A stretch of 64,000 nt of DNA, taken from Massilia atriviolacea (GTDB lineage: Bacteria; Pseudomonadota; Gammaproteobacteria; Burkholderiales; Burkholderiaceae_D). Shown here piece after piece: positions 8,082 to 39,268 of the stretch. The stretch spans positions 62,001 through 126,000 of the forward strand of contig NZ_RXLQ01000006.1 in assembly GCF_003953935.1 (NCBI RefSeq), given 5' to 3'. Within the stretch, counting starts at the first letter, position 1, and each line of letters opens with the position of its first letter. Made by a program: the position numbers and the translations under genes. The notes beneath the pieces are model-generated. The model made no database searches. It was given only the letters and a program-made list of their open reading frames with translations, and had not been told where the DNA came from.

Positions 8082-8618
8082 ATGATTATTCTTGGCATTG
8101 ACCCGGGCCTGCGCACCACAGGCTTCGGGCTTATCGAAAAGCACGGCAACAAGCTGCGCTACATCGCGTCCGGCACCATCAAGACGGTGTCGGAAGGCGA
8201 GCTCCCCGGCCGTCTGAAGATCATCCTCAACGGGATCGCCGAGATCGTCCGCACCTACCAGCCCGATTGCGCGGCGGTGGAAAAAGTCTTCGTCAACGTC
8301 AATCCCCAATCGACCTTGCTGCTCGGGCAGGCGCGCGGCGCCGCCATTACGGCCCTGGTCGGCGCCGACCTGTCGGTGGCCGAGTACACCGCCTTGCAGG
8401 TCAAGCAAGCCGTCACCGGGCACGGCAAGGCGGCCAAGGAACAGGTGCAGGACATGGTGGCGCGCCTGCTGGTGCTGCCCGGCCTGCCCGGGACCGATGC
8501 CGCCGATGCGCTCGGCGTGGCCATCTGCCACGCCAACAGTATCGACGCGCTGGCGCTGATCGGCGCGCTGGCGCCCTCGCTTTCCGGCCTGCGCATGAAG
8601 CGCGGCCGTCTCGTTTAA
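8082..8618 (+). CDS. ruvC: crossover junction endodeoxyribonuclease RuvC
   Basis: A 178-residue Holliday-junction resolvase with the catalytic acidic residues in place: Asp in [13 protein letters not shown], Glu in [10 protein letters not shown], and the C-terminal [12 protein letters not shown] with two aspartates. It starts the ruvC-ruvA-ruvB recombination and repair cluster on the plus strand. The start ATG is fixed by the conserved N-terminus. Confidence 0.97.
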
Positions 8619-8638
8619 CCTCGCTTGAAGGTCTTCCC

Positions 8639-9217
8639 ATGATCGGACGTATTTCCGGAACTTTGCTCGAAAAAAATCCGCCGCAGTTGCTGGTCGATTG
8701 CAACGGCGTCGGCTATGAAATCGATGTGCCGATGAGTACCTATTACGACTTGCCGGCGCTCGGCGCGCAAGTCACCCTGTTCACGCACCAGGCGATCCGC
8801 GAAGATGCGCACCTGCTGTTCGGCTTCGGCAATGCGGCCGAGCGCGCGGTGTTTCGCCAGTTGATCAAGATCACCGGCGTGGGGGCGCGCACGGCGCTGT
8901 CTATCCTGTCCGGGATGACCGTCAACGACCTGGCGCAGGCCGTCACCTTGCAGGAAGCGGGGCGCCTGGTGAAGGTGCCGGGCATCGGCAAGAAGACGGC
9001 CGAACGCTTGCTGCTGGAACTGAAGGGCAAGCTCGGCGCCGACCTCGGCGCGGCGGGCGGCGTGGTGCAGCACGATGCGCAGTCGGATATGTTGAATGCG
9101 CTGCTGGCCTTGGGGTATTCTGACAAGGAAGCCACTGCCGCGCTGCGCAATATGCCGGCCGGCAGCACCGTTTCGGACGGCATCAAGTTTGCGCTCAAGG
9201 CGCTGTCCAAGGGCTGA
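8639..9217 (+). CDS. ruvA: Holliday junction branch migration protein RuvA
   Basis: A 192-residue DNA-binding subunit of the RuvAB branch-migration motor. The N-terminal OB fold ([15 protein letters not shown]), the helix-hairpin-helix motifs ([14 protein letters not shown] and [20 protein letters not shown]) and the C-terminal RuvB-interacting domain ([12 protein letters not shown]) are all present. It begins 21 bases after ruvC and is probably co-transcribed. Confidence 0.97.
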
Positions 9218-30468: not shown

Positions 30469-30497
30469 GCCGAACCGGCCGCGCCGCTGGCCGTCGA

Positions 30498-31007
30498 TCA
30501 GCCATTGAATCTGGCGGCCAGGCGCGGTAGCCTGGCGTCGACGGCGTCTTCGTCCCAGCTCTCGCCGTGCGGGCCATCCTGGAACGCAAACAGATGGCGC
30601 GGGAATGCGTCGCCCGGGCGGCCGGTTTTTTCTTCCCATACCTGGCTGGGCAGGTACAGGATGCCCTCGACCTGGCATTCGCCGTCGGCTTCGCCGACCA
30701 CATCGGCCAGGCTGTCGGCATCGCGCAGCGCCGCTTCGAACACCTGTTCGCCTTTGCCGATCAGCCAAGCCGTGAAATCCATGAAGCCATCATCCGAGCA
30801 ACCGCCGCCGATGATATAGGCCGCCGCCCACAGATCCCAATGGTAGGCGCGATTGACCTGCTCGACCATCAGGCGGTCGAACGCCACGATCTGGTCCGGG
30901 TCGAGTTCCGCCAGCATGGCGCCGAGCGTGTCGATCTGTGCGTCAGGATCGTTGTCGGCAGCCAGGCGCGATGCGTCGATCAGTTTCCAGAATTCCTTCT
31001 TTTCCAT
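30498..31007 (-). CDS. DUF4240 family protein
   Basis: A 169-residue acidic, soluble protein resembling DUF4240: EFWKLIDASRLAADNDPDAQIDTL near the N-terminus, IVAFDRLMVEQVNRAYHWDLWAAAYIIGGGCSDDGFMDFTAWLIGKG in pieces across the centre. The family has no known function and often occurs as a lone gene. An in-frame TTG four codons upstream is possible, but GGGAG sits just before the ATG at 31007. It is convergent with frmA. Confidence 0.7.
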   Translation of the reverse strand: MEKKEFWKLIDASRLAADNDPDAQIDTLGAMLAELDPDQIVAFDRLMVEQVNRAYHWDLWAAAYIIGGGCSDDGFMDFTAWLIGKGEQVFEAALRDADSLADVVGEADGECQVEGILYLPSQVWEEKTGRPGDAFPRHLFAFQDGPHGESWDEDAVDARLPRLAARFNG

Positions 31008-31233
31008 GTTGTCTCCCAAGTGAAATGTATGCCACTCGGCATTCTATCGGACCTGCCAGCGTCCTTGGAAAGGAGTCGGAATTGGGCCCGCTCGGGCGCA
31101 ATGCCCGGTTTGGGCGCGATCAACAGCCGCGCTTGTACGCAGACCTATATTGAACTTCCCGGGGTGTCGTTAGTCCGTATCCAAACAGCAAGAGCACCCC
31201 CTGTTGCAGTGCGTCGTTTTGTGGAGGTTTCAA

Positions 31234-31677
31234 ATGGATCCCAAAGTATTCCAGAGCCTGGTCGAGAAGGCCCAAGCCGATCCCGCCTTTTTCCATCAGT
31301 TGATTTTTACCCCGGAAACCGTCATCGCCCAGGTGAGCGACCTTGACCGCCAGGCCAAGGGTTCGCTGGTGGGCCTGGACCCGGCAGCCCTGATCGCCAC
31401 TGCCGTGGGCATCTTGCAGCGCTGCGGCAATACCTGTTCCAGCAGCTGCGACAACACCTGCGGCGGCAGCTGCGGCTACACCACCAACCTGACCGCCGAA
31501 GTGGCGGTGTCCACGCCCGCCGTCACCTATTTCTCGCGCCTGAACAGCGCCTTGCAACGCTGCGGCAACACCTGCTCGAGCAGCTGCGACAACACCTGCG
31601 GCGAAAGCTGCGGCTACACCACCAACTTCACCGACATGGGCCCCGTGATCGCCAATCCGGCCGCCTGGAACCGCTAA
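31234..31677 (+). CDS. RiPP precursor peptide A with duplicated Cys-rich core
   Basis: A 147-residue putative lanthipeptide precursor. Residues 1-60 form a leader (FQSLVEKAQADPAFFHQLI, LDRQAKGSLVGLDP) that looks like Nif11/nitrile-hydratase-type leaders. Two core blocks follow, each of 25 residues: residues 61-85 and 107-131, differing at a single residue (Gly versus Glu). In each block Cys falls at exactly every fourth residue (64, 68, 72, 76, 80 and 110, 114, 118, 122, 126), and every Cys but the first is preceded by Ser or Thr. GTGGAGG just upstream supports the ATG at 31234. Precursor B and the modifying enzyme lie immediately downstream. A metal-binding role is the alternative reading. 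Confidence 0.8.
   Translation: MDPKVFQSLVEKAQADPAFFHQLIFTPETVIAQVSDLDRQAKGSLVGLDPAALIATAVGILQRCGNTCSSSCDNTCGGSCGYTTNLTAEVAVSTPAVTYFSRLNSALQRCGNTCSSSCDNTCGESCGYTTNFTDMGPVIANPAAWNR
31414..31488 (+). repeat. core block 1 of precursor A
   Basis: A 75-base unit encoding LQRC followed by four xx[S/T]C modules and GYTTN. It is repeated at 31552-31626 with mostly synonymous differences, which suggests selection on the peptide rather than a very recent DNA copy. Confidence 0.9.
31552..31626 (+). repeat. core block 2 of precursor A
   Basis: The second 75-base unit, 138 bases after the first (centre to centre), in the same reading frame. It encodes the same peptide with one Gly-to-Glu change. The 21-residue segment between blocks (LTAEVAVSTPAVTYFSRLNSA) lacks Cys and could be a spacer or internal cleavage region. 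Confidence 0.9.
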
Positions 31678-31750
31678 GCGGCGCTGCGACGCGCCAGGCA
31701 GCGGCGGCGCGTCGTTTTCGGCCTTGCCGCTGTCGACAAAGGAGTCCGCC

Positions 31751-32137
31751 ATGGACCGAACGACTTTCGCCCGCCTGGTCGCCGACCTGCGCGGCAATGC
31801 GCAACTGTTTCACACCTTCCTGGCCGATCCGGCCGCCGCGCTGGCCACGCTGGCCTACCTCGACGAGGCGACGCGGCGCACCATGCGCGCCATCGATCCG
31901 CAGACCTTCCTCGCCGACGCCGCCGCGCTGTTGGGGCGCGAGCGCGCGCTGCGGGCCTGCGGCCCCGAATACACCTGTTCCTGCACCTCCTACACCTGCG
32001 CCGGCGTCACCTGCGGCGGCTCGACCTGCGACGTCACCTGCACCGAGTTCAGTTGCGGTAATACCTGCGGCGACAGCTGCGGCTTCACCACCAATATCGG
32101 ATCGCGCTTCTTCACCTGGAAACGAGCCACCCCATGA
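31751..32137 (+). CDS. RiPP precursor peptide B, Cys/Thr-rich core
   Basis: A 128-residue putative precursor. The leader (residues 1-66) shares its pattern with precursor A (FxxLV, FHxxxxxP, LDxxxxxxxxxxDP). The core has ten Cys at residues 70, 76, 78, 83, 88, 93, 97, 102, 106 and 110, all but the first preceded by Ser or Thr, and ends CGFTTN like the A blocks (CGYTTN). AGGAG lies seven bases before the ATG at 31751; a TTG nine codons upstream is rejected. The stop overlaps the synthetase start by four bases, so the two are translationally coupled. Confidence 0.82.
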   Translation: MDRTTFARLVADLRGNAQLFHTFLADPAAALATLAYLDEATRRTMRAIDPQTFLADAAALLGRERALRACGPEYTCSCTSYTCAGVTCGGSTCDVTCTEFSCGNTCGDSCGFTTNIGSRFFTWKRATP

Positions 32138-34800
32138 ACCCATCCCCCGAGAGCGCACTTCCCGCTACGTCCTATCACGATCGTCTGCAGCGCCTCGGCC
32201 TGGCGCCTGAGAGCAGCGGCGTGTGGCTCAAGGTCGGCCGCACCGGCAGCGTGCAAGGCTGGAAGCTGCACGTCTCGAGCGTGCCGGCCGAAGCGCACGC
32301 CCTGCTCGACGCCATCGTTCCCGTCCTGCGCGCCGCCAAGGTCCCCTTCAAGATCGCCAGGGACGCCACCATCCTCGGGCTGCTCAACGAAGGCAACCTG
32401 GGCGCCACCCAGGTCGGCAAATTCTGCACCATCTACCCGCCCGACGACAGCGCCGCCAGGGCGCTCGCCGCGCAGCTGGTGCAAGCCACGCAGGGCTTCA
32501 ACGGCCCGGCGATCACGTCCGACATGGCGCTCGGCCAGCTGGTGTATGCGCGCTACGGCGGCTTTAACACGATCGTCGAGCGCGACCTGCTCGGCCAGCA
32601 CCACCTGTACATCCGCGACGGCGCCGGCCAGCTGGTCGCCGACGCCTACACCCAGCCCTTCGTGGCGCCGTCCTTCGCCGCCTGCCCGTTCGACAGCGCG
32701 CCAGCGCCAGCGCCCAGGACCGGCGGCCCCGCCACCTTCGGTCCCGGCTACGTGCTGGTCGACGTCATCAGGCATCACGCCAAAGGCAATGTGTACCTGG
32801 CGATCCTGGCGCGCTCGCAGGACAGCGTGGCCGCGCGGGTCATCAAGGAAGGGCGCAAGCACTGCCTGTCCGACATCCACGGGCGCGACATCCGGGTGCG
32901 CCTGCAGCGCCAGGGCGCGCTCCATGCGCAGCTGGCCTCGGTGGCGCCGGTGCCCGCTTGCGATCCGTACTTCGAAGTCGACGGCGACGGCTACCTGCCG
33001 ATGGCCTACCTGGCCGGCGCCGACCTGGAAAGCGTGGTGCAGGCGACCCTGCAACGCGGCCCCTGGAGCGCGGCCGCCCGCGCCGGCCAGCTGCGCCTGC
33101 TGGACGCCCTGCGCCAGCTGGTCGACGCCGTCCAGCGCCTGCACGGCGCCGGTGTCGTGCACCGCGACCTGAGCGTATCGAACGTCTGGCTGGGAGACGA
33201 CGGCCGGACCTGGCTGCTCGACCTCGAAATCGCCCAGCACGTGGGCGACCCCGGTCCCGTGTTCGGCAAGGGCACGCCGGGCTTCATGGCGCCGGAACAG
33301 GAAGCCGGCGCCGCGCCCACCTTCGCCCAGGACATCCATGCGGTGGCGGCGCTGATCCTGTTCGCGCTGACCGGCCTCGATCCGCGCCGCACCCTGTTCG
33401 CGCGCGGCGAGTCGCGCGTGCGCAATGTGCGCCATCTGGCCGCCTCGGCGCCCGAGGCCCTGCTCGAGCTGGTGCTGGCCGGGGTCGACGACGATCCGCT
33501 GGCGCGGCCCACGCTGGAGGCCATCGGGCGCCAGCTGGCGGAGTACGCAGCGAGCCTGCGCGCCGGGGCGGCGCCTGTGGCGAGTGCGGCGCCGGCGCAG
33601 GACATCGATGTTGCCGCCTGCGCCCACGGCGCGGGACTCGGCCTGCTGCGCCACACCTTCCGCGATCCGCAATCGGGGCTGTGGCTGTCGGCCGCCGTGT
33701 CGCATGCGGGGGGCGGGCAGGAGCAAGCCTCTTCGTACGAACTGCGGCGCGGCGCCAATCGCGGCGTGGCGGGCGTGGTGTATGCGCTGGCGCGCCTGGC
33801 GCGCGCCGGTATCGCCATCGACGCTGCCGCGCCGGCGGTGAACCGGGCCGTGGACTGGCTGCTGTCGGACGCCGTCACGCCCGACCACGGCATGCCCGGC
33901 CTGCACTTCGGCGACGCCGGCGTGGCGGTCGGCATCGCCGAAGCCGTGCAGGCCGGACTGGTGCCGGCCACGCCGCGCATCGCCGGCTTCATGGCGCGCG
34001 TGTCCGGCGCGCCGATCGCCTGGCCCGATCTCACGCACGGCGCGGCGGGGCAGGGCCTGGCCGCCTTGATGTGCGCCGCCAGTCTGGGCACGGATGCGCC
34101 GCTGGCCATGGCGCAGCGCTGCGCGCGCTACCTGGTTGACACCCAGGCGGCGGACGGCTCCTGGGTCATGCCCGAGGGCGTGCCCGGCATGTCGGGCGAG
34201 ACCCTGAGCGGCTTTGCCCACGGCGTGGCCGGCATGGTGTTCTTCCTCCTGGAGCATGGCGCCCGCTGCGGCGACGACAACAGCCGCGCCAGCGCCGCGC
34301 GCGGCCTGCGCTGGCTGGAAGAGCATGCGCTGGCGGCCGATGCCACGGCGGCGGTCGAATGGCGCTACAGCGACCGCCAGGGCGCCGTGTGGCACTGGTG
34401 GTGCCACGGCGCGCCCGGCATCGCGCTGACCTTCCTGCGCGCCTGGCGCCATACGCAGGACCCGGCAATGGCGCTGCTGGCGCGGCGCGCGCTGGACGCC
34501 ATCGATCCCCATCTGCGCGCGCCCAACCTGACCGTCTGCCATGGGCTTGCGGGAATCGGCGAGATCTTGCTGGAGGCGGCGCAAACGCTGGGCGAACCGG
34601 CCTGGCGCGACAAGGCGGCCACGCTCGCTTGCACCATCGTGCATCTGGGGCACCGCTGCGCCGACGGCAGCCTGGTATGGCTGGCGGAAGACCCGGTCGC
34701 GCCGACCGCCGACCTGATGGTCGGGATGGGCGGCATCGCCCACTTCCTGGCGCGCCTGGGCGAGGGCGGCGGGGGCCTGGGCTTTCCGCTGCTGCCCTAG
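32134..34800 (+). CDS. lanthipeptide synthetase, lyase-kinase-cyclase type (LanKC/LanL-like)
   Basis: An 888-residue three-domain enzyme predicted to phosphorylate Ser/Thr of the precursors, eliminate phosphate and cyclise Cys onto the dehydro residues. Domain 1 (about 35-185) is an OspF/SpvC-like lyase with GWKLHVSS (Lys44, His46), PFKIARD, GKFCTIYP and YARYGGF. Domain 2 (about 205-470) is a protein kinase with VVHRDLSVSNVWL (343-353), DLE in place of DFG at 363, and GTPGFMAPEQ. Domain 3 (about 495-880) is LanC-like with GFAHGVAG (His696), WWCHGAPG (Cys757) and VCHGLAG (Cys802-His803). The intact zinc ligands resemble class IV LanL more than classical class III enzymes. No transporter or leader protease gene is adjacent. 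Confidence 0.9.
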   Translation: MNPSPESALPATSYHDRLQRLGLAPESSGVWLKVGRTGSVQGWKLHVSSVPAEAHALLDAIVPVLRAAKVPFKIARDATILGLLNEGNLGATQVGKFCTIYPPDDSAARALAAQLVQATQGFNGPAITSDMALGQLVYARYGGFNTIVERDLLGQHHLYIRDGAGQLVADAYTQPFVAPSFAACPFDSAPAPAPRTGGPATFGPGYVLVDVIRHHAKGNVYLAILARSQDSVAARVIKEGRKHCLSDIHGRDIRVRLQRQGALHAQLASVAPVPACDPYFEVDGDGYLPMAYLAGADLESVVQATLQRGPWSAAARAGQLRLLDALRQLVDAVQRLHGAGVVHRDLSVSNVWLGDDGRTWLLDLEIAQHVGDPGPVFGKGTPGFMAPEQEAGAAPTFAQDIHAVAALILFALTGLDPRRTLFARGESRVRNVRHLAASAPEALLELVLAGVDDDPLARPTLEAIGRQLAEYAASLRAGAAPVASAAPAQDIDVAACAHGAGLGLLRHTFRDPQSGLWLSAAVSHAGGGQEQASSYELRRGANRGVAGVVYALARLARAGIAIDAAAPAVNRAVDWLLSDAVTPDHGMPGLHFGDAGVAVGIAEAVQAGLVPATPRIAGFMARVSGAPIAWPDLTHGAAGQGLAALMCAASLGTDAPLAMAQRCARYLVDTQAADGSWVMPEGVPGMSGETLSGFAHGVAGMVFFLLEHGARCGDDNSRASAARGLRWLEEHALAADATAAVEWRYSDRQGAVWHWWCHGAPGIALTFLRAWRHTQDPAMALLARRALDAIDPHLRAPNLTVCHGLAGIGEILLEAAQTLGEPAWRDKAATLACTIVHLGHRCADGSLVWLAEDPVAPTADLMVGMGGIAHFLARLGEGGGGLGFPLLP

Positions 34801-34969
34801 CCGTTCGCGCGCCGGCGCGGCCAGCGCCGGCGTGCGCCGCTGCGCGCGCCAGGCGCGCATTCGCGCCACCTGTTCCCCAAAATCGACCGCCCATCGCCCG
34901 CCGCTGGAGCAGGCTCCCCCATCTGTCTACAGTCATGCTCACCCAGGCCGCGCCAGCGGCTGCCGGGAA

Positions 34970-35015
34970 GTAGAAAAATAGTTCTAGACAAAATTATCTA
35001 GATATTTTATTCTAC
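34970..35015 (+). promoter_or_regulatory. large imperfect palindrome upstream of the first M56 peptidase gene
   Basis: Arms of 19 bases (34970-34988 and 34997-35015) match at 15 positions; the inner part is TCTAGA on both sides and the outer part GTAGAA/TTCTAC. The whole stretch is very AT-rich inside GC-rich flanks. It lies about 45 bases before the ATG at 35059, as expected of a repressor operator over a promoter. It differs from the BlaI-type twin operator at 37563-37604. Confidence 0.5.
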
Positions 35016-35058: not shown

Positions 35059-37008
35059 ATGAACGACATGCTCGCCGTCATCGTCCCCAGCCTGGGCTGG
35101 GCGCTGCTCGATTTTGTCTGGCAGGGCGCGCTGATCGGCTGCCTGGCCGCGATCGCCATGGGATTGCTGCGCGCTGCGCGGCCCCAGGTGCGCTACGCCG
35201 TCGCTTGCGGCGCGCTGCTGTTGTGCGCCGCCTTGCCGCTGGCCGGGACCGTGCAGCGCGTGCTCGCAGCGCAGGCGGCGTCGACCACGATGCTGCCCTT
35301 GCGCGCGATCGCCCTGCCGGGCGGCGCCGGGGACGCGCCGGCACTGGCCGTGCAGCTCGCCACCTGGGAGCCGGTGCTGCAACAGCGCCTGCCGCTGCTG
35401 ATGCTGTTCTGGAGCTGCGGCGCCGGCCTGCTGGCGCTGCGCCTGATGCTCGGCCTGGCCTGGGTGCGGCGCCGCAGCCAGCCGGGCCGCTATGTGCGGC
35501 ACTCCGCCTGGCAGGCGCGCGTGGACCGGCTGGCGCTGCGCTTCGGCGTGGCCCGCCGTGTCGCGCTGGGGCTGGTGGACGACTTGCCCAGCCCGGTCAC
35601 GGCCGGCTGGTGGCGTCCGCTGATCCTGGTGCCGGCCTCGCTGGCGACCGGCATGCCGCCCGATTTGCTGGAAGCGCTGCTGGCGCACGAAATGGCGCAC
35701 ATCAAGCGCTGCGATTACCTGGTCAACCTGATACAAAGCGCGATCGACATCGTGTTGTTCTATCACCCGGCGGTGTGGTGGCTGTCGCACCGGGTGCGGA
35801 TCGAACGCGAACAGATTGCGGATGATCTAGCAGCAAGCATGCTCGGCGAACCGCGGCGTCTGGCGCTTGCATTATCCGAACTGGACCGGTTCCAGTTCTC
35901 CACACCTCAACTCGCCCACGGGGCTCACGGAGGAAATCTTATGTCCCGCATCAAACGCCTGGTCCGCCCGGATACCGAACCACTGAACTGGAAGATGGCA
36001 TTGCCGATCCTCGGCTTGTCGGCCGCCTGCGCCGCCTTCTACGCCAACGCCCAGACAGTCCCTTTAGCGCCCGCCAAGGCGGTGCGCGCCGACAGCCCGG
36101 CGGCGGTACCGCCTGCGCCGCCCGCACCGCCGGCGCCGCCCGCACCGCCGGCGCCGCCCGCCTTGCGCGTTGCCGCAGCCGCTCCCGCCGCGCCACCGGC
36201 GCCGCCCGCTCCCCCCGCGCCGCCCGCGCCGCCGCCTCTTCCGGTGAGCATCAGCAAAGGCCCCGGCGAGATGGCGTATGCGCTGGTGCAGGGCCGCGAA
36301 CGCAAGGGCATGCTCAGCGGCGACAGCCGCGACTTCGACGAGATCGCCGCCGCCAAGCACACGGTCGACGGCGATTTCCTGTGGTTCCGCCAGGGCGGCA
36401 AGGCCTACCTTGTGCAGGACCCGGCCCTGATCGCGAAAGCGACCGAAGCCTACGCGCCGCTCAAGCGCCTCGGCGAGCAGATGGACGTGCATGGCAAGGA
36501 GATGGAAAAGCACGGCAAGGTGGTCGAGCAGCTGGGCCGCGAGATGGAGCGCAAGGCCGGCGCCAGCCAGCCCGGACACGCCGAAACGAAGCGCATTTCC
36601 GGCCTGGTCGCCGCGCTGGCGCAGCAGCAGGGGCGCCTGCAGCGCGAGATCGTGCAGCTGGAGCGCCAGATCGACGACGCCGGCGGCCCTGCGCGTGCGC
36701 AGTTGTCGGCCAAGCGCGACCAGCTCAACGTGAAACTGAGCGACATCGAACGCCAGCTCGACGTGCAGCACGCGCATCTCGAACGCCAGCATGGCGCGAT
36801 GGAACATGCGCGCGCGCCGATGGAGGCGATCAGCGAGCGGATGAAGGAAGCCGGCAAGCCGATGGACGCGCTGGGCAAGAAAATGAACGTGCTGGGACGC
36901 GAGATGGACCAGCAAGGCAAGGTGGTCGAGCGGGTGATGCGCGACGTCCTGCGCGACGCCGTCGCGCGCGGCCTGGCGCGGCCGGTGCCGGGCCAGCGCG
37001 CCGGCTGA
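35059..37008 (+). CDS. BlaR1-like M56 metallopeptidase with Pro-rich linker and coiled coil
   Basis: A 649-residue inner-membrane protein. N-terminal transmembrane helices (about residues 10-40, 50-70, 110-130) surround an M56 zinc peptidase domain with HEMAHIKRCDYLVN (HExxH near 211) and a later EQIADD. A further helix near 315-330 is followed by a PPAPPAPP-rich linker (about 345-394) and a long Glu/Lys/Gln-rich coiled coil (about 440-640) with repeated Met-x-x-xGK motifs. Sensor domains of classical BlaR1 (penicillin-binding fold) are absent. No blaI gene is directly beside it; the nearest is at 37621. Confidence 0.8.
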   Translation: MNDMLAVIVPSLGWALLDFVWQGALIGCLAAIAMGLLRAARPQVRYAVACGALLLCAALPLAGTVQRVLAAQAASTTMLPLRAIALPGGAGDAPALAVQLATWEPVLQQRLPLLMLFWSCGAGLLALRLMLGLAWVRRRSQPGRYVRHSAWQARVDRLALRFGVARRVALGLVDDLPSPVTAGWWRPLILVPASLATGMPPDLLEALLAHEMAHIKRCDYLVNLIQSAIDIVLFYHPAVWWLSHRVRIEREQIADDLAASMLGEPRRLALALSELDRFQFSTPQLAHGAHGGNLMSRIKRLVRPDTEPLNWKMALPILGLSAACAAFYANAQTVPLAPAKAVRADSPAAVPPAPPAPPAPPAPPAPPALRVAAAAPAAPPAPPAPPAPPAPPPLPVSISKGPGEMAYALVQGRERKGMLSGDSRDFDEIAAAKHTVDGDFLWFRQGGKAYLVQDPALIAKATEAYAPLKRLGEQMDVHGKEMEKHGKVVEQLGREMERKAGASQPGHAETKRISGLVAALAQQQGRLQREIVQLERQIDDAGGPARAQLSAKRDQLNVKLSDIERQLDVQHAHLERQHGAMEHARAPMEAISERMKEAGKPMDALGKKMNVLGREMDQQGKVVERVMRDVLRDAVARGLARPVPGQRAG

Positions 37009-37115
37009 TGCTGTTTACGTTAACTTAATTGCATGTCGATTGTGCAATGATTTAGAATCGTGCTTCCGGCCGGTGCCGGAAGCGTTACCACTATCGACAC
37101 TCTGTTAAGGAAACC

Positions 37116-37526
37116 ATGAACCAAGCGCTACGCGCGGCCTGCGCCGCGGCTGCCATGCTGTGCACCGCCCAATCGCACGCCGCTGCGGTCGACATCAAGG
37201 GCCGCTGGGTCATCGACCTGCCGCCCATGATCGAGCAGGCCAGGGCCATGAAAGGCGGCGACAGGGAAATCGCCCAGCTCGAACGCACCTTCAAGGATGG
37301 GGTGATGGCGATCGACGCCGCAACCCTCAAGCTGTCGGTCGGCGGCATCAAGGGCGAGCCGCTCAGCTATCCCTACAAGCTGGTCGCCGCCGATCCCAGG
37401 AAACCCCACTGCGTCAACCTGTCGGTGGCAGCCTTGCCGAAGCCGCTGTCGCTGTGCATCGACGATGGCGTGCTGTCGGTCAACGATCCGACCAGCGCCC
37501 TGGTCTCAAAGTACCGTCGCGAGTAA
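37116..37526 (+). CDS. hypothetical exported protein
   Basis: A 136-residue protein with a signal peptide (MNQALRAACAAAAMLCTAQSHA) and a small mature domain of about 113 residues (DIKGRWVIDLPPMIEQ; TLKLSVGGIKGEPLSYPYKL). It contains two mature-part Cys (HCVNLS, LCIDDG) that could form a disulfide. No family recognised. It lies between the two M56 systems on the same strand. Confidence 0.6.
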   Translation: MNQALRAACAAAAMLCTAQSHAAAVDIKGRWVIDLPPMIEQARAMKGGDREIAQLERTFKDGVMAIDAATLKLSVGGIKGEPLSYPYKLVAADPRKPHCVNLSVAALPKPLSLCIDDGVLSVNDPTSALVSKYRRE

Positions 37527-37562
37527 TCCGGCAAGCCCGATCGAGAAGGGCTTGACCTTTGC

Positions 37563-37604
37563 GATTACGCGTGTAATCATTCGCCATCGATTACACGCGT
37601 AATT
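37563..37604 (+). promoter_or_regulatory. twin BlaI-type operator before the blaI-like gene
   Basis: GATTACGCGTGTAATC (37563-37578) and its reverse complement form GATTACACGCGTAATT (37589-37604) face each other, centres 26 bases apart. Each is itself a near-dyad with GATTAC and GTAATC ends, containing the TTAC/GTAA half-sites typical of BlaI/MecI/CopY repressors. The second ends 16 bases before the repressor ATG, fitting autoregulation. Confidence 0.7.
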
Positions 37605-37620
37605 AATAAGGGAGTGGTGC

Positions 37621-38007
37621 ATGGAACAACAAGCGGCAGGGATCAGCGACGCCGAGTCGAAGGTCATGGAAGTACTGTGGCAGGGCAGTGGGGCGATGCC
37701 GGCCGACGACATCGTGGCAGCGCTCGTGAGTGGCCATGAGTGGCAGGAAGCGACCATCAAGTCGCTGCTCAACCGGCTGCTCAACAAGGGTGCGATCAGC
37801 GCGCGGAAAGAAGGCCGCCGCTATCTGTACACGGCCGTGCTCAAGCGCGAGCAGTGGCTCACCAGCGAAAGCAAGGGCATGCTCGACCGCCTGTTCGGCG
37901 GGCGCATCGCGCCGCTGGTGGCGCATTTCGGCAAGCACCGCAAACTGAGCAAGACCGACATCGCCGAACTCAAACGCCTGATTGGAGAGCTCGACGATGA
38001 TGCATAG
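37621..38007 (+). CDS. BlaI/MecI/CopY family transcriptional repressor
   Basis: A 128-residue winged-helix repressor: ISDAESKVMEVLWQGSGAMPADDIVAAL, then WQEATIKSLLNRLLNKGAI and RRYLYTAVLKREQW, matching the Penicillinase_R domain. Such repressors are inactivated by proteolysis triggered through the partner M56 membrane protein. GGGAG lies just before the ATG. It overlaps the downstream M56 gene by 11 bases, so the pair is an operon, and the twin operator upstream suggests autoregulation. Confidence 0.92.
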   Translation: MEQQAAGISDAESKVMEVLWQGSGAMPADDIVAALVSGHEWQEATIKSLLNRLLNKGAISARKEGRRYLYTAVLKREQWLTSESKGMLDRLFGGRIAPLVAHFGKHRKLSKTDIAELKRLIGELDDDA

Positions 38008-39268
38008 CCTGCCCGCACTGCTGCTGCGCCTGACCGTTGCCGCCAGTGTGGCGCTTGCCGTCGTGCTGCTGGTGCGGCGCCCGCTGCGCCAGCGCGTCGA
38101 CGCCGGCCTGGCTTACCAGGCCTGGCTGATCGTCCCGCTGGCGCTGGCCGCCGCCGCCGCGCAGCCGCTGTTTGCCGCGCCGCTGAAGGCCATGGTGCTG
38201 CTGCCGGCGCTGGGCCGCGCGCCCGCCGCGCAAGGCGCCGTCACCGCCACGGCCGCCGCCCGGGATGCAGGCGGCGCGCTGCTGCTGGCCTGGGCCTGCG
38301 GTGCGCTGGCGACACTGATCCTGTTCTGCCTGAGCCATCGCGCCTTCGTACGCAGCCTGGGCACATTGACAATGCGCGGCGGCCTCGCCTACGCCGAGCA
38401 TGCCGGCAGCGGCCCGGCCCTGCTCGGCCTGTGGCGCCCGCGGATCGTCGTGCCGCCCGATTTCGACCAGCGCTACAGCGCCGCCGAACAGGCGCTGATC
38501 GTCGCCCACGAACAGGTCCACGCGCAGCGCGCCGATGCGGTTGCCAATATCTTGCTGGCACTGATGCAGTGCGTGTTCTGGTTCAATCCCCTCGTGCACC
38601 TGGCCGCGCCGCGCTTTCGCTTCGACCAGGAGCTGGCCTGCGACGCGGAGGTAATGCGGCGCCATCCGGCGCAGCGCCGCAGCTATGCCGGCGCGATGAT
38701 GAAAACCCAGGCCGGCGTGAGCCTCACGCCGTCCGTCTGCCACTGGCAATCCTGCCACCCACTCAAGGAGCGCATCATGCATCTGCAACAAACCCCGTCA
38801 TCCCCGTCGCGCCGCCGCACCGGCCGCATTCTGGTGCTGGCTCTGGCCGCCGCCACCGGCTTCGCCGCCCTGGCGGCGCGCGCCCAGGCCGACGCCGTGC
38901 CTACCGCTGTGCCTACCGCCGTGCCTACCGCTGTGCCTGCCACCACCTACGCCGTCGCCATGCGCATCGATATGGGGACGGGCAAGGCGCCGCACACGAT
39001 GCAGGTGCGCACGCCGGGGAATTTTTCGGTCAGGGTGGGCGAGGGCGACAGCGTCTGGAGCGGCGAATTCACGATGACGCCGGCCGGTCCCGAACAACTG
39101 TTCGTGCGCAGTAAAATCAGCCAGAACGGCAAGCTGGTTGGCGAGCCCGGCATCCTGACGCGCCTGGGCGCCGGCAGCGGCATCAAGATTGCCGGGACCA
39201 GCGGCGCGCCCGGTCTGGCGCTTGAGTTGACAGTGACGCAAGAGAACAAGACCGCCCCGGACGCCTGA
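37997..39268 (+). CDS. BlaR1-like M56 family metallopeptidase
   Basis: A 423-residue inner-membrane zinc peptidase with N-terminal helices, VVPPDFDQRYSAAEQALIVAHEQVHAQ in pieces (HExxH at about 171) and FDQELACDAEVM carrying the third ligand. After a further helix near residues 278-295 comes a short VPTA-type repeat and a periplasmic domain of about 110 residues of unknown fold, without a penicillin-binding motif. It presumably senses an envelope signal and leads to cleavage of the BlaI-like repressor. Starts ATGATG at 37997. Confidence 0.85.
   Translation: MMHSLPALLLRLTVAASVALAVVLLVRRPLRQRVDAGLAYQAWLIVPLALAAAAAQPLFAAPLKAMVLLPALGRAPAAQGAVTATAAARDAGGALLLAWACGALATLILFCLSHRAFVRSLGTLTMRGGLAYAEHAGSGPALLGLWRPRIVVPPDFDQRYSAAEQALIVAHEQVHAQRADAVANILLALMQCVFWFNPLVHLAAPRFRFDQELACDAEVMRRHPAQRRSYAGAMMKTQAGVSLTPSVCHWQSCHPLKERIMHLQQTPSSPSRRRTGRILVLALAAATGFAALAARAQADAVPTAVPTAVPTAVPATTYAVAMRIDMGTGKAPHTMQVRTPGNFSVRVGEGDSVWSGEFTMTPAGPEQLFVRSKISQNGKLVGEPGILTRLGAGSGIKIAGTSGAPGLALELTVTQENKTAPDA

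What the first reader, a model, noticed from the sequence alone, without database searches (positions are those of the whole stretch)
31234..34800. Compact lanthipeptide-like locus with two ten-cysteine precursors and a lyase-kinase-cyclase
Two small genes with related leaders and Cys/Ser/Thr-rich C-termini lie directly before a three-domain lanthionine synthetase, and the second precursor overlaps the enzyme by four bases. The core pattern, xx[S/T]C repeated at nearly constant spacing, differs from the SxxSxxC (labionin) pattern I know for class III peptides and from the class IV peptides I can recall. Seen: gene order, motifs, Cys spacing. Known: the lyase-kinase-LanC architecture of LanKC/LanL. 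Inferred: a multi-ring, polymer-like lanthipeptide.
Basis: partly seen in the sequence, partly recalled or inferred. Interest (0 to 1): 0.88.

Follow-up and report, generated by a model that had tools for sequence, protein, structure and literature searches.

The report
Class IV-like lanthipeptide locus, cysteine-ladder precursors
A Massilia-like bacterium carries a three-gene unit that most likely makes heavily cross-linked small peptides; the enzyme is of a known type, but I found no description of its combination with these peptides and leaders, and a related gene pair sits on a plasmid of a distant bacterium.

Summary
lanA1 (31234-31677), lanA2 (31751-32137) and lanL (32134-34800) form one unit; each precursor has ten Cys, and lanA2 overlaps lanL by ATGA. 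The enzyme is lyase-kinase-LanC with an intact LanC zinc triad (C757, C802, H803), so class IV-like (LanL), although it passes neither NCBIfam cut-off. The leaders weakly resemble nitrile-hydratase/Os1348-type (NHLP) leaders.

The unit is in 6 of 17 genomes of the genus, with a natural empty site in a seventh. A 44%-identical LanL with a lanA1-type precursor lies on a plasmid of Haematobacter massiliensis (Alphaproteobacteria): in its blocks the five Cys and the five Ser/Thr at Cys+3 are identical to Massilia's, the residues between mostly not (3 of 10). Core dN/dS is 0-0.1.

The repeat reads better as C-x-x-[S/T] than [S/T]C: all 135 Cys in 21 blocks have a private Ser/Thr 3-5 residues downstream, 89 one upstream. 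This suggests, without proving, small rings with Cys on the N-terminal side; one core fits both directions. Ring chemistry, leader removal, export and function are untested. Verdict: new variant of a known kind.

The parts
30471..34868 (.). island that carries the unit (here with a DUF4240 gene that is missing in two of the six lan loci); flanks are contiguous (319 bp between adhC and the M56 gene) in genome G138, which lacks it
   Evidence: blastn of the empty site against the window, left match ends at 30470, right match starts at 34869; gene order
31223..31227 (+). GGAGG ribosome-binding site of lanA1
   Evidence: sequence
31234..31677 (+). lanA1, precursor with one leader and two nearly identical 5-Cys blocks
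   Evidence: found in 6 of 17 genus genomes; relative on the Haematobacter plasmid
31234..31422 (+). lanA1 leader (residues 1-63), weakly NHLP/Os1348-like, predicted helical
31423..31488 (+). lanA1 core block 1 (residues 64-85), C-x-x-T C-x-x-S C-x-x-T C-x-x-S C-x-x-T-T-N
   Evidence: invariant in 6 genomes, no nonsynonymous change
31561..31626 (+). lanA1 core block 2 (residues 110-131)
31740..31744 (+). AGGAG ribosome-binding site of lanA2
   Evidence: sequence
31751..32137 (+). lanA2, precursor with one leader and one 10-Cys core
31751..31957 (+). lanA2 leader (residues 1-69)
31958..32095 (+). lanA2 core (residues 70-115), ends CGFTTN like the lanA1 blocks end CGYTTN; holds one SxxSxxC (residues 77-83)
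32134..34800 (+). lanL, lyase-kinase-LanC synthetase, class IV-like
32212..32721 (+). phospho-Ser/Thr lyase domain (RamC_N, residues 27-196)
   Evidence: Pfam PF25816 E 1.9e-40
32782..33390 (+). kinase domain (residues 217-419); K238, D345, N350, D363 conserved in 16 of 16 aligned enzymes
33760..34758 (+). LanC cyclase domain (residues 543-875)
   Evidence: Pfam PF05147 E 5.1e-27
34402..34404 (+). codon of predicted zinc ligand C757
   Evidence: conserved in 7 of 7 enzymes of this clade, in 0 of 9 class III enzymes of the family
34537..34542 (+). codons of predicted zinc ligands C802 and H803
   Evidence: as above

Best explanation
A compact lanthipeptide unit. The two precursors are recognised through helical NHLP-like leaders; the LanL kinase domain phosphorylates Ser/Thr of the cores, the lyase domain removes phosphate to give Dha/Dhb, and the zinc-containing LanC domain adds the Cys thiols to form (methyl)lanthionines, up to about five per lanA1 block and ten in lanA2. 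Shown here by sequence: gene order, domains, catalytic and zinc-ligand residues, conservation and co-occurrence, the C-x-x-[S/T] ladder. Inferred: that modification happens, its extent, leader recognition, and ring direction. I think rings between each Cys and the Ser/Thr three (to five) residues after it are somewhat more likely (about 0.4) than the usual Ser/Thr-first rings (about 0.35); the rest is mixed or partial cyclisation. I saw no protease or transporter gene of a lanthipeptide type beside the unit, so processing and export, if any, would use other genes (three C39-peptidase proteins exist elsewhere in the genome, but the leaders lack a Gly-Gly end).
For: Domains above Pfam cut-offs. 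NF038150 class IV 538 bits against NF038151 class III 333 bits. Nearest solved structure by sequence 8car, E 1.9e-54, against 9.1e-22 for the best class III enzyme; 8car/8cav are titled as the curvocidin synthetase CuvL. Zinc triad and LanC histidines H635, H696 kept in 7 of 7. Precursor and enzyme in the same 6 of 17 genomes. Haematobacter pair: enzyme 44% identical, leader 27 of 63, Cys 5 of 5 and Cys+3 5 of 5 identical, Cys+1/+2 3 of 10. dN/dS 0.00, 0.05 and 0.10 in the three cores, 0.18 and 0.39 in the leaders, 0.28 in lanL. Leaders: at E up to 1, NF038399 (Os1348/NHLP) matches 10 of 12, best E 9.3e-5, TIGR03793 6 of 12, TIGR04509 4 of 12; 0 of 10 reversed or shuffled decoys match any family; of the 34 PDB matches of the leader model, ranks 1-2 are Os1348 chains and ranks 3-6 nitrile hydratase A chains. 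The only LANC_like match in the genome is this one.
Against: No product, mass or transcript data. The enzyme is below both NCBIfam cut-offs (650 class IV, 575 class III). The NHLP matches are weak (window's lanA1 leader 18.7 bits against a cut-off of 40); the structural matches all have E of 1.9 or worse, with a model of pLDDT 73.8, and many of the 34 are unrelated proteins such as OphA; the profile comparison with NHLP/nitrile hydratase gives 69% probability over 31 columns; the Haematobacter leader alone gives only E 0.038. The LanL structure model is poor (pLDDT 49.4). No linked immunity gene recognised. lanA2 holds one labionin-type SxxSxxC. The direction argument rests on about four related core families; the extra G192 core fits both directions within 3-5 residues and there exceeds shuffles both ways.
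Confidence: 0.78

Rival explanations
1. Same system, but with the usual ring direction: Dha/Dhb on the N-terminal side, each Thr/Ser joined to the Cys about five residues later, giving overlapping rings; the first two Cys of a block stay free or form a disulfide and the final Ser and Thr-Thr stay uncyclised or dehydrated.
For: Usual direction in characterised lanthipeptides (recalled). With partners 3-5 residues upstream 89 of 135 Cys can be paired; with 2-8 upstream 3 of 5, 4 of 5, 8 of 10 and 5 of 5 in four cores. The extra G192 core pairs 5 of 5 at 3-5 upstream, more than shuffles (P 0.0035). 7 of 21 blocks have some Ser/Thr within five residues before the first Cys.
Against: Leaves conserved Cys and Thr without partners: in 0 of 21 blocks does Ser/Thr directly precede the first Cys, the Ser/Thr further upstream are not at fixed positions, and in 21 of 21 Ser/Thr lies at +3 after the last Cys. 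Upstream counts do not exceed shuffles in the B1, B2 and A2 cores (P 0.48-0.69 at 3-5) or the two Haematobacter blocks (P 0.27, 0.58).
Confidence: 0.35
2. The enzyme dehydrates the cores, but most Cys stay free or bind metal or form disulfides; the ladder is a metal- or redox-binding repeat rather than a ring series.
For: C-x-x-x-C repeats are also seen in other Cys-rich peptides (recalled); weak matches to the Cxxx radical-SAM target models TIGR04114 (E 0.6) and TIGR04117 (E 0.41).
Against: Exact T/S identity at Cys+3 across two classes of Proteobacteria, and a LanC domain with an intact zinc triad.
Confidence: 0.1
3. The enzyme is a class III LanKC and the product carries labionin.
For: Same three domains; other members of the family have class III enzymes (9 of 9 tested pass the class III cut-off); lanA2 has one SxxSxxC, kept in 6 of 6 genomes.
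Against: Zinc triad present, absent in all 9 class III relatives aligned; class III score 333 of 575 needed. No SxxSx(2-5)C within the lanA1 blocks of 7 genomes.
Confidence: 0.05

Closest known systems
Class IV lanthipeptide synthetases LanL (CuvL of curvocidin; venezuelin and SgbL systems recalled)
   Same: lyase-kinase-LanC order, LanC zinc ligands, best solved-structure match; that CuvL is class IV is recalled
   Different: below the NCBIfam LanL cut-off; in the CuvL alignment the second zinc motif reads CCG where this has CHG; precursors have 10 Cys and long NHLP-like leaders. PMC7268733 (passages) says the majority of LanKC/LanL are from Actinobacteria and Firmicutes; PMC12328550 (passages) says class IV was found only there; PMC9576775 (section 9) reports a class IV product from Chondromyces with a single ring
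NHLP/Nif11-type RiPP precursors (proteusins, TOMM and LanM substrates)
   Same: weak leader similarity to Os1348 and nitrile hydratase alpha
   Different: PMC2887384 (passages) ties NHLPs to TOMM and LanM enzymes, Gly-Gly ends and hypervariable cores; here the enzyme is a LanL, there is no Gly-Gly, and the cores are nearly invariant
Class III lanthionine synthetases (LanKC) of the same family
   Same: three-domain enzyme
   Different: no zinc ligands, pass the class III cut-off (9 of 9)
Cinnamycin-type lanthipeptides (recalled)
   Same: rings with Cys on the N-terminal side exist there
   Different: LanM enzyme, long rings; here short repeated units, inferred only

Membership tests
class IV lanthipeptide synthetase (LanL) | lyase, kinase and LanC domains in one protein | tested here: met
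   PF25816, PF00069, PF05147 above cut-offs
class IV lanthipeptide synthetase (LanL) | zinc ligands in the LanC domain | tested here: met
   C757, C802, H803 in 7 of 7; 0 of 9 class III enzymes
class IV lanthipeptide synthetase (LanL) | score over the curated LanL cut-off (650 bits) | tested here: not met
   538.4 bits; Haematobacter relative 551.2. The label class IV-like is therefore used
class IV lanthipeptide synthetase (LanL) | forms (methyl)lanthionine in the cognate peptide | not testable with these tools
   needs co-expression and MS
class III (LanKC) | LanC domain without zinc ligands, score over 575 bits | tested here: not met
   ligands present, 332.9 bits
NHLP/Os1348 leader clan | score over a curated clan cut-off | tested here: not met
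   18.7 bits for the window's lanA1 leader against 40 for NF038399
NHLP/Os1348 leader clan | sequence and fold similarity to nitrile hydratase alpha/Os1348 | tested here: inconclusive
   10 of 12 leaders match NF038399 at E up to 1, decoys 0 of 10; Foldseek ranks Os1348 first but E 1.9
NHLP/Os1348 leader clan | Gly-Gly-type cleavage site | tested here: not met
   the 21 blocks are preceded by LQR, LRA, LAG and the like, never GG
Cxxx radical-SAM targets | score over TIGR04114/TIGR04117 cut-offs | tested here: not met
   10.7 of 20 bits and 10.8 of 50 bits

The most novel reading that the evidence does not exclude
A LanL that builds a ladder of consecutive four-residue thioether rings with Cys on the N-terminal side (C-x-x-Dhx, alternating methyllanthionine and lanthionine: T, S, T, S, T), directed by a folded NHLP-type leader: a ring topology and a leader-enzyme pairing that I did not find described for class IV, kept nearly fixed by selection and present in Beta- and Alphaproteobacteria.
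Probability: 0.38. Interest if true: 0.8.

Novelty: new variant of a known kind. Interest (0 to 1): 0.6.

Why it matters
It extends class IV-like enzymes to Beta- and Alphaproteobacteria, joins them to what looks like a leader type known from LanM and YcaO pathways, and offers a small two- or three-gene system with a strictly regular core in which the direction and size choice of a LanC cyclase can be read directly by mass spectrometry. Nearly invariant cores suggest one fixed molecular job rather than a varying antibiotic library.

Tried and rejected
The downstream M56/BlaI genes as part of the unit (leader protease): rejected, because the first M56 gene lies before uvrD in all 5 lan-less loci that I read (5 of the 11 lan-less genus genomes), directly after adhC in G138; the repressor and second M56 gene were seen in one of those 5 and in 3 of the 6 lan loci. 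DUF4240 gene as part of the unit: present in 4 of 6 lan loci; a 49%-identical copy in lan-less G159. Phage or viral origin: the core pattern and the LanL profile gave no confirmed match in viral contigs, the Haematobacter LanL none in phage records. Leader profile in 274 genomes of the class: matches in 2, the own genome and a weak one in G629 (E 0.002, with a stop) that I set aside. LanL family in 398 genomes of the phylum: only the own genome at E 1e-40; the rows listed show at most two candidates scored per genome, so absences are soft. The genome-contig scan returned 34 loci, 4 of them the Massilia LanLs; of the other 30 I examined 6 (L058, L060, L063, L065, L066, L082) by blastp: 5 match only in and around the kinase stretch, L058 gave no match among ORFs of 400 aa or more. 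That scan did not return Haematobacter, so the distribution is probably underestimated. Of 9 weak matches outside the genus I read 7 (L133, L134, L135, L136, L138, L139, L141) and judged them chance: three have 0-2 Cys and three 4-5 scattered Cys; L141 is a short CGLR/CGLS tandem repeat of 5 Cys without a leader, not followed further; L137 and L140 were not read. RNA folding: two stretches like their shuffles, a GC-rich hairpin after lanL with z -1.99 (5 of 200 shuffles as good). The second-look structural library was unavailable. Paper searches; none of the listings names this unit, but the library holds open-licence papers only, and the antiSMASH tables behind PMC10213415 (abstract and passages seen; it reports RiPP clusters in these Massilia, no word beginning lanthi) were not read. 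PMC12350317 (passages) mentions two class IV lanthipeptide clusters from Greenland ice without an organism in what I saw.

In one search the flanks of the typed blocks B1 and B2 were a hand-typed mix of two genomes; one search repeats the pairing counts on exact sequences of all 21 blocks. The shuffle P values were not repeated.
Full report
Where it is. The window is part of a 7.36 Mb genome (G000:C54:62001-126000). The nearest named relatives with the unit are Massilia aquatica, mucilaginosa, rubra and frigida; the taxonomy lists these names also under Mokoshia as synonyms. PMC10213415 (abstract and passages) names these four as Antarctic Massilia. The window's own species and habitat are not known to me.

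What is there. lanA1 (31234-31677, 147 aa), lanA2 (31751-32137, 128 aa) and lanL (32134-34800, 888 aa) lie on one strand, each small gene with a good ribosome-binding site, and lanA2 overlaps lanL by ATGA. lanA1 has one leader and two 22-residue blocks of five Cys each, separated by a 24-residue spacer; lanA2 has one leader and one ten-Cys core that ends like the lanA1 blocks (CGFTTN against CGYTTN). In genome G192 lanA2 is a leader-core-leader-core fusion whose first core is new in sequence.

The enzyme. All three domains pass Pfam cut-offs. It scores 538 bits with the class IV model and 333 with the class III model, below both cut-offs. The next nine best enzymes of the family search (from eight genomes, eight enzymes of other genera and one, L043, a second enzyme of the lan-bearing genome G181) all pass the class III cut-off, and none has the LanC zinc ligands; the six Massilia enzymes and the Haematobacter one all have C757, C802 and H803 (window numbering) as well as both LanC histidines. 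The nearest solved structure is CuvL. I therefore call it class IV-like. The AlphaFold model of the enzyme was poor (pLDDT 49.4) and is not used beyond noting that Foldseek ranks CuvL first.

The leaders. Twelve leaders (six of each kind) were scanned against NCBIfam at E up to 1: 10 match the Os1348/NHLP domain model (best E 9.3e-5), 6 the NHLP leader model, 4 an NHLP-related model; the window's lanA1 leader, the one whose bit scores are shown, stays below the cut-offs. Ten decoys, five reversed and five shuffled, matched nothing. In Pfam the same leaders gave only weak, unrelated matches (best E 0.085). Profile comparison with a small set of NHLP and nitrile-hydratase fragments gave 69% probability over 31 columns. 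The predicted leader is all-helical (pLDDT 73.8); of its 34 Foldseek matches in the PDB the first two are Os1348 chains and the next four nitrile hydratase A chains, all with poor E-values from 1.9 upward, followed by a mixture that includes OphA. Together I take the leader to be a remote NHLP-clan member, at about 0.75. PMC2887384 (passages) describes NHLP leaders with TOMM and LanM enzymes and with hypervariable cores; PMC12455567 (abstract and passages) reports that such leaders are folded and recognised as proteins.

Distribution. Precursor and enzyme are both present in the same 6 of 17 genomes of the genus (6 of the 15 that are at least 90% complete), at the same place between adhC and an M56 peptidase gene (6 of 6, and window). 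In G138 the same neighbours are contiguous with 319 bp between them and no lan genes; the aligned edges put the island at about 30471-34868. Searching 72,556 plasmid records with LanL gave 16 records; the best, plasmid pOT1-4 of Haematobacter massiliensis, has a 41.9%-identical enzyme over 97% of the length, the only one covering 80% or more; the gene before it, annotated as hypothetical, is a lanA1-type precursor, and I saw no lanA2 there. Searching the same plasmids with that precursor returned only this record. The unit or its core therefore occurs in two classes of Proteobacteria, which with its patchy presence suggests horizontal transfer (inference).

The core. Comparing a lanA1 block with the Haematobacter block, the five Cys and the five residues at Cys+3 (T, S, T, S, T) are identical, against 3 of 10 residues at Cys+1 and Cys+2. 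Within the genus dN/dS (sums over all pairs) is 0.00 and 0.05 in the lanA1 blocks, 0.10 in the lanA2 core (5 of 6 genomes; the G192 fusion was left out), 0.18 and 0.39 in the leaders, 0.47 in the spacer, 0.39 in the lanA1 tail, 0.28 in lanL, and 1.56 in the nine-codon lanA2 tail. Over all 21 blocks (14 of lanA1 type, 6 of lanA2, and the extra G192 core; 135 Cys), one-to-one pairing with Ser/Thr 3-5 residues downstream succeeds for 135 of 135 Cys, and 3-5 upstream for 89 of 135; with 3-4 residues the counts are 129 and 35. No block has Ser/Thr directly before its first Cys, 7 of 21 have one within five residues before it at varying positions, and all 21 have one at +3 after the last Cys. Shuffles that keep Cys in place reach the downstream count with P 0.0005-0.0045 at 3-4 and 0.0015-0.0345 at 3-5 in four cores; the upstream count with P above 0.85 at 3-4, and at 3-5 with P 0.48-0.69 in three cores but 0.0035 in the extra G192 core. 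The Haematobacter blocks give P 0.0017 and 0.0020 downstream (3-4), 0.27 and 0.58 upstream (3-5). The blocks are related, so these are about four independent families at most. Because spacing is four, Cys+3 is also the place before the next Cys, so only the block ends tell the two readings apart.

How it most likely works. Kinase, lyase and LanC domains act in turn on Ser/Thr and Cys of the cores; class IV chemistry is established for LanL enzymes (recalled; stated also in the passages of PMC7268733 and PMC12328550). The regular C-x-x-[S/T] unit and the stranded ends under the usual direction lead me to prefer, slightly, rings with Cys on the N-terminal side. This is inference, and mass spectrometry would settle it.

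What is not known. In the neighbourhood that I annotated there is no lanthipeptide-type protease or exporter; three C39-peptidase proteins lie elsewhere in the genome, but the leaders have no Gly-Gly end. The function of the product is unknown. The nearly fixed core argues for a structural or signalling role, or a single target, over a variable antibiotic; this is a guess.

Noticed in passing
window 34985-35014: A palindromic AT-rich stretch before the M56 gene, kept in the empty-site genome; with the BlaI-type repressor gene at 37621-38007 it may be a BlaI/MecI operator.
   Followed up: partly
window 35059-39268: Two BlaR1-type M56 peptidase genes with a penicillinase-type repressor gene between them; three of the six lan loci show neither the repressor nor the second M56 gene at full length.
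   Followed up: partly
L131 9269-9523 (own genome contig C1): A second Os1348-family peptide gene (84 aa, over the family cut-off), without Cys, next to a 1702-aa open frame.
   Followed up: no
L147 4497-4772 and 4902-6473: Salipiger plasmid: a small peptide gene with a Cys/Ser/Thr-rich end just before a 523-aa protein annotated as protein kinase that matches the lyase-kinase part of LanL and is too short to hold a LanC domain.
   Followed up: no
L040 (reverse complement) 8494-8745: A small frame that ends in a Ser/Cys-rich stretch (SSTSSNACCACSTPSECACF...), possibly the precursor of the class III enzyme of genome G282.
   Followed up: no
L038 9501-10253: lanA2 of G192 is a leader-core-leader-core fusion with a sequence-diverged first core that keeps C-x(2,3)-T.
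   Followed up: yes
L004 (G148): Second zinc motif reads CHR instead of CHG; the ligands themselves are kept.
   Followed up: no
L141 (G176): A weak profile match that is a short CGLR/CGLS tandem repeat of five Cys in an open frame without a leader; judged chance.
   Followed up: partly
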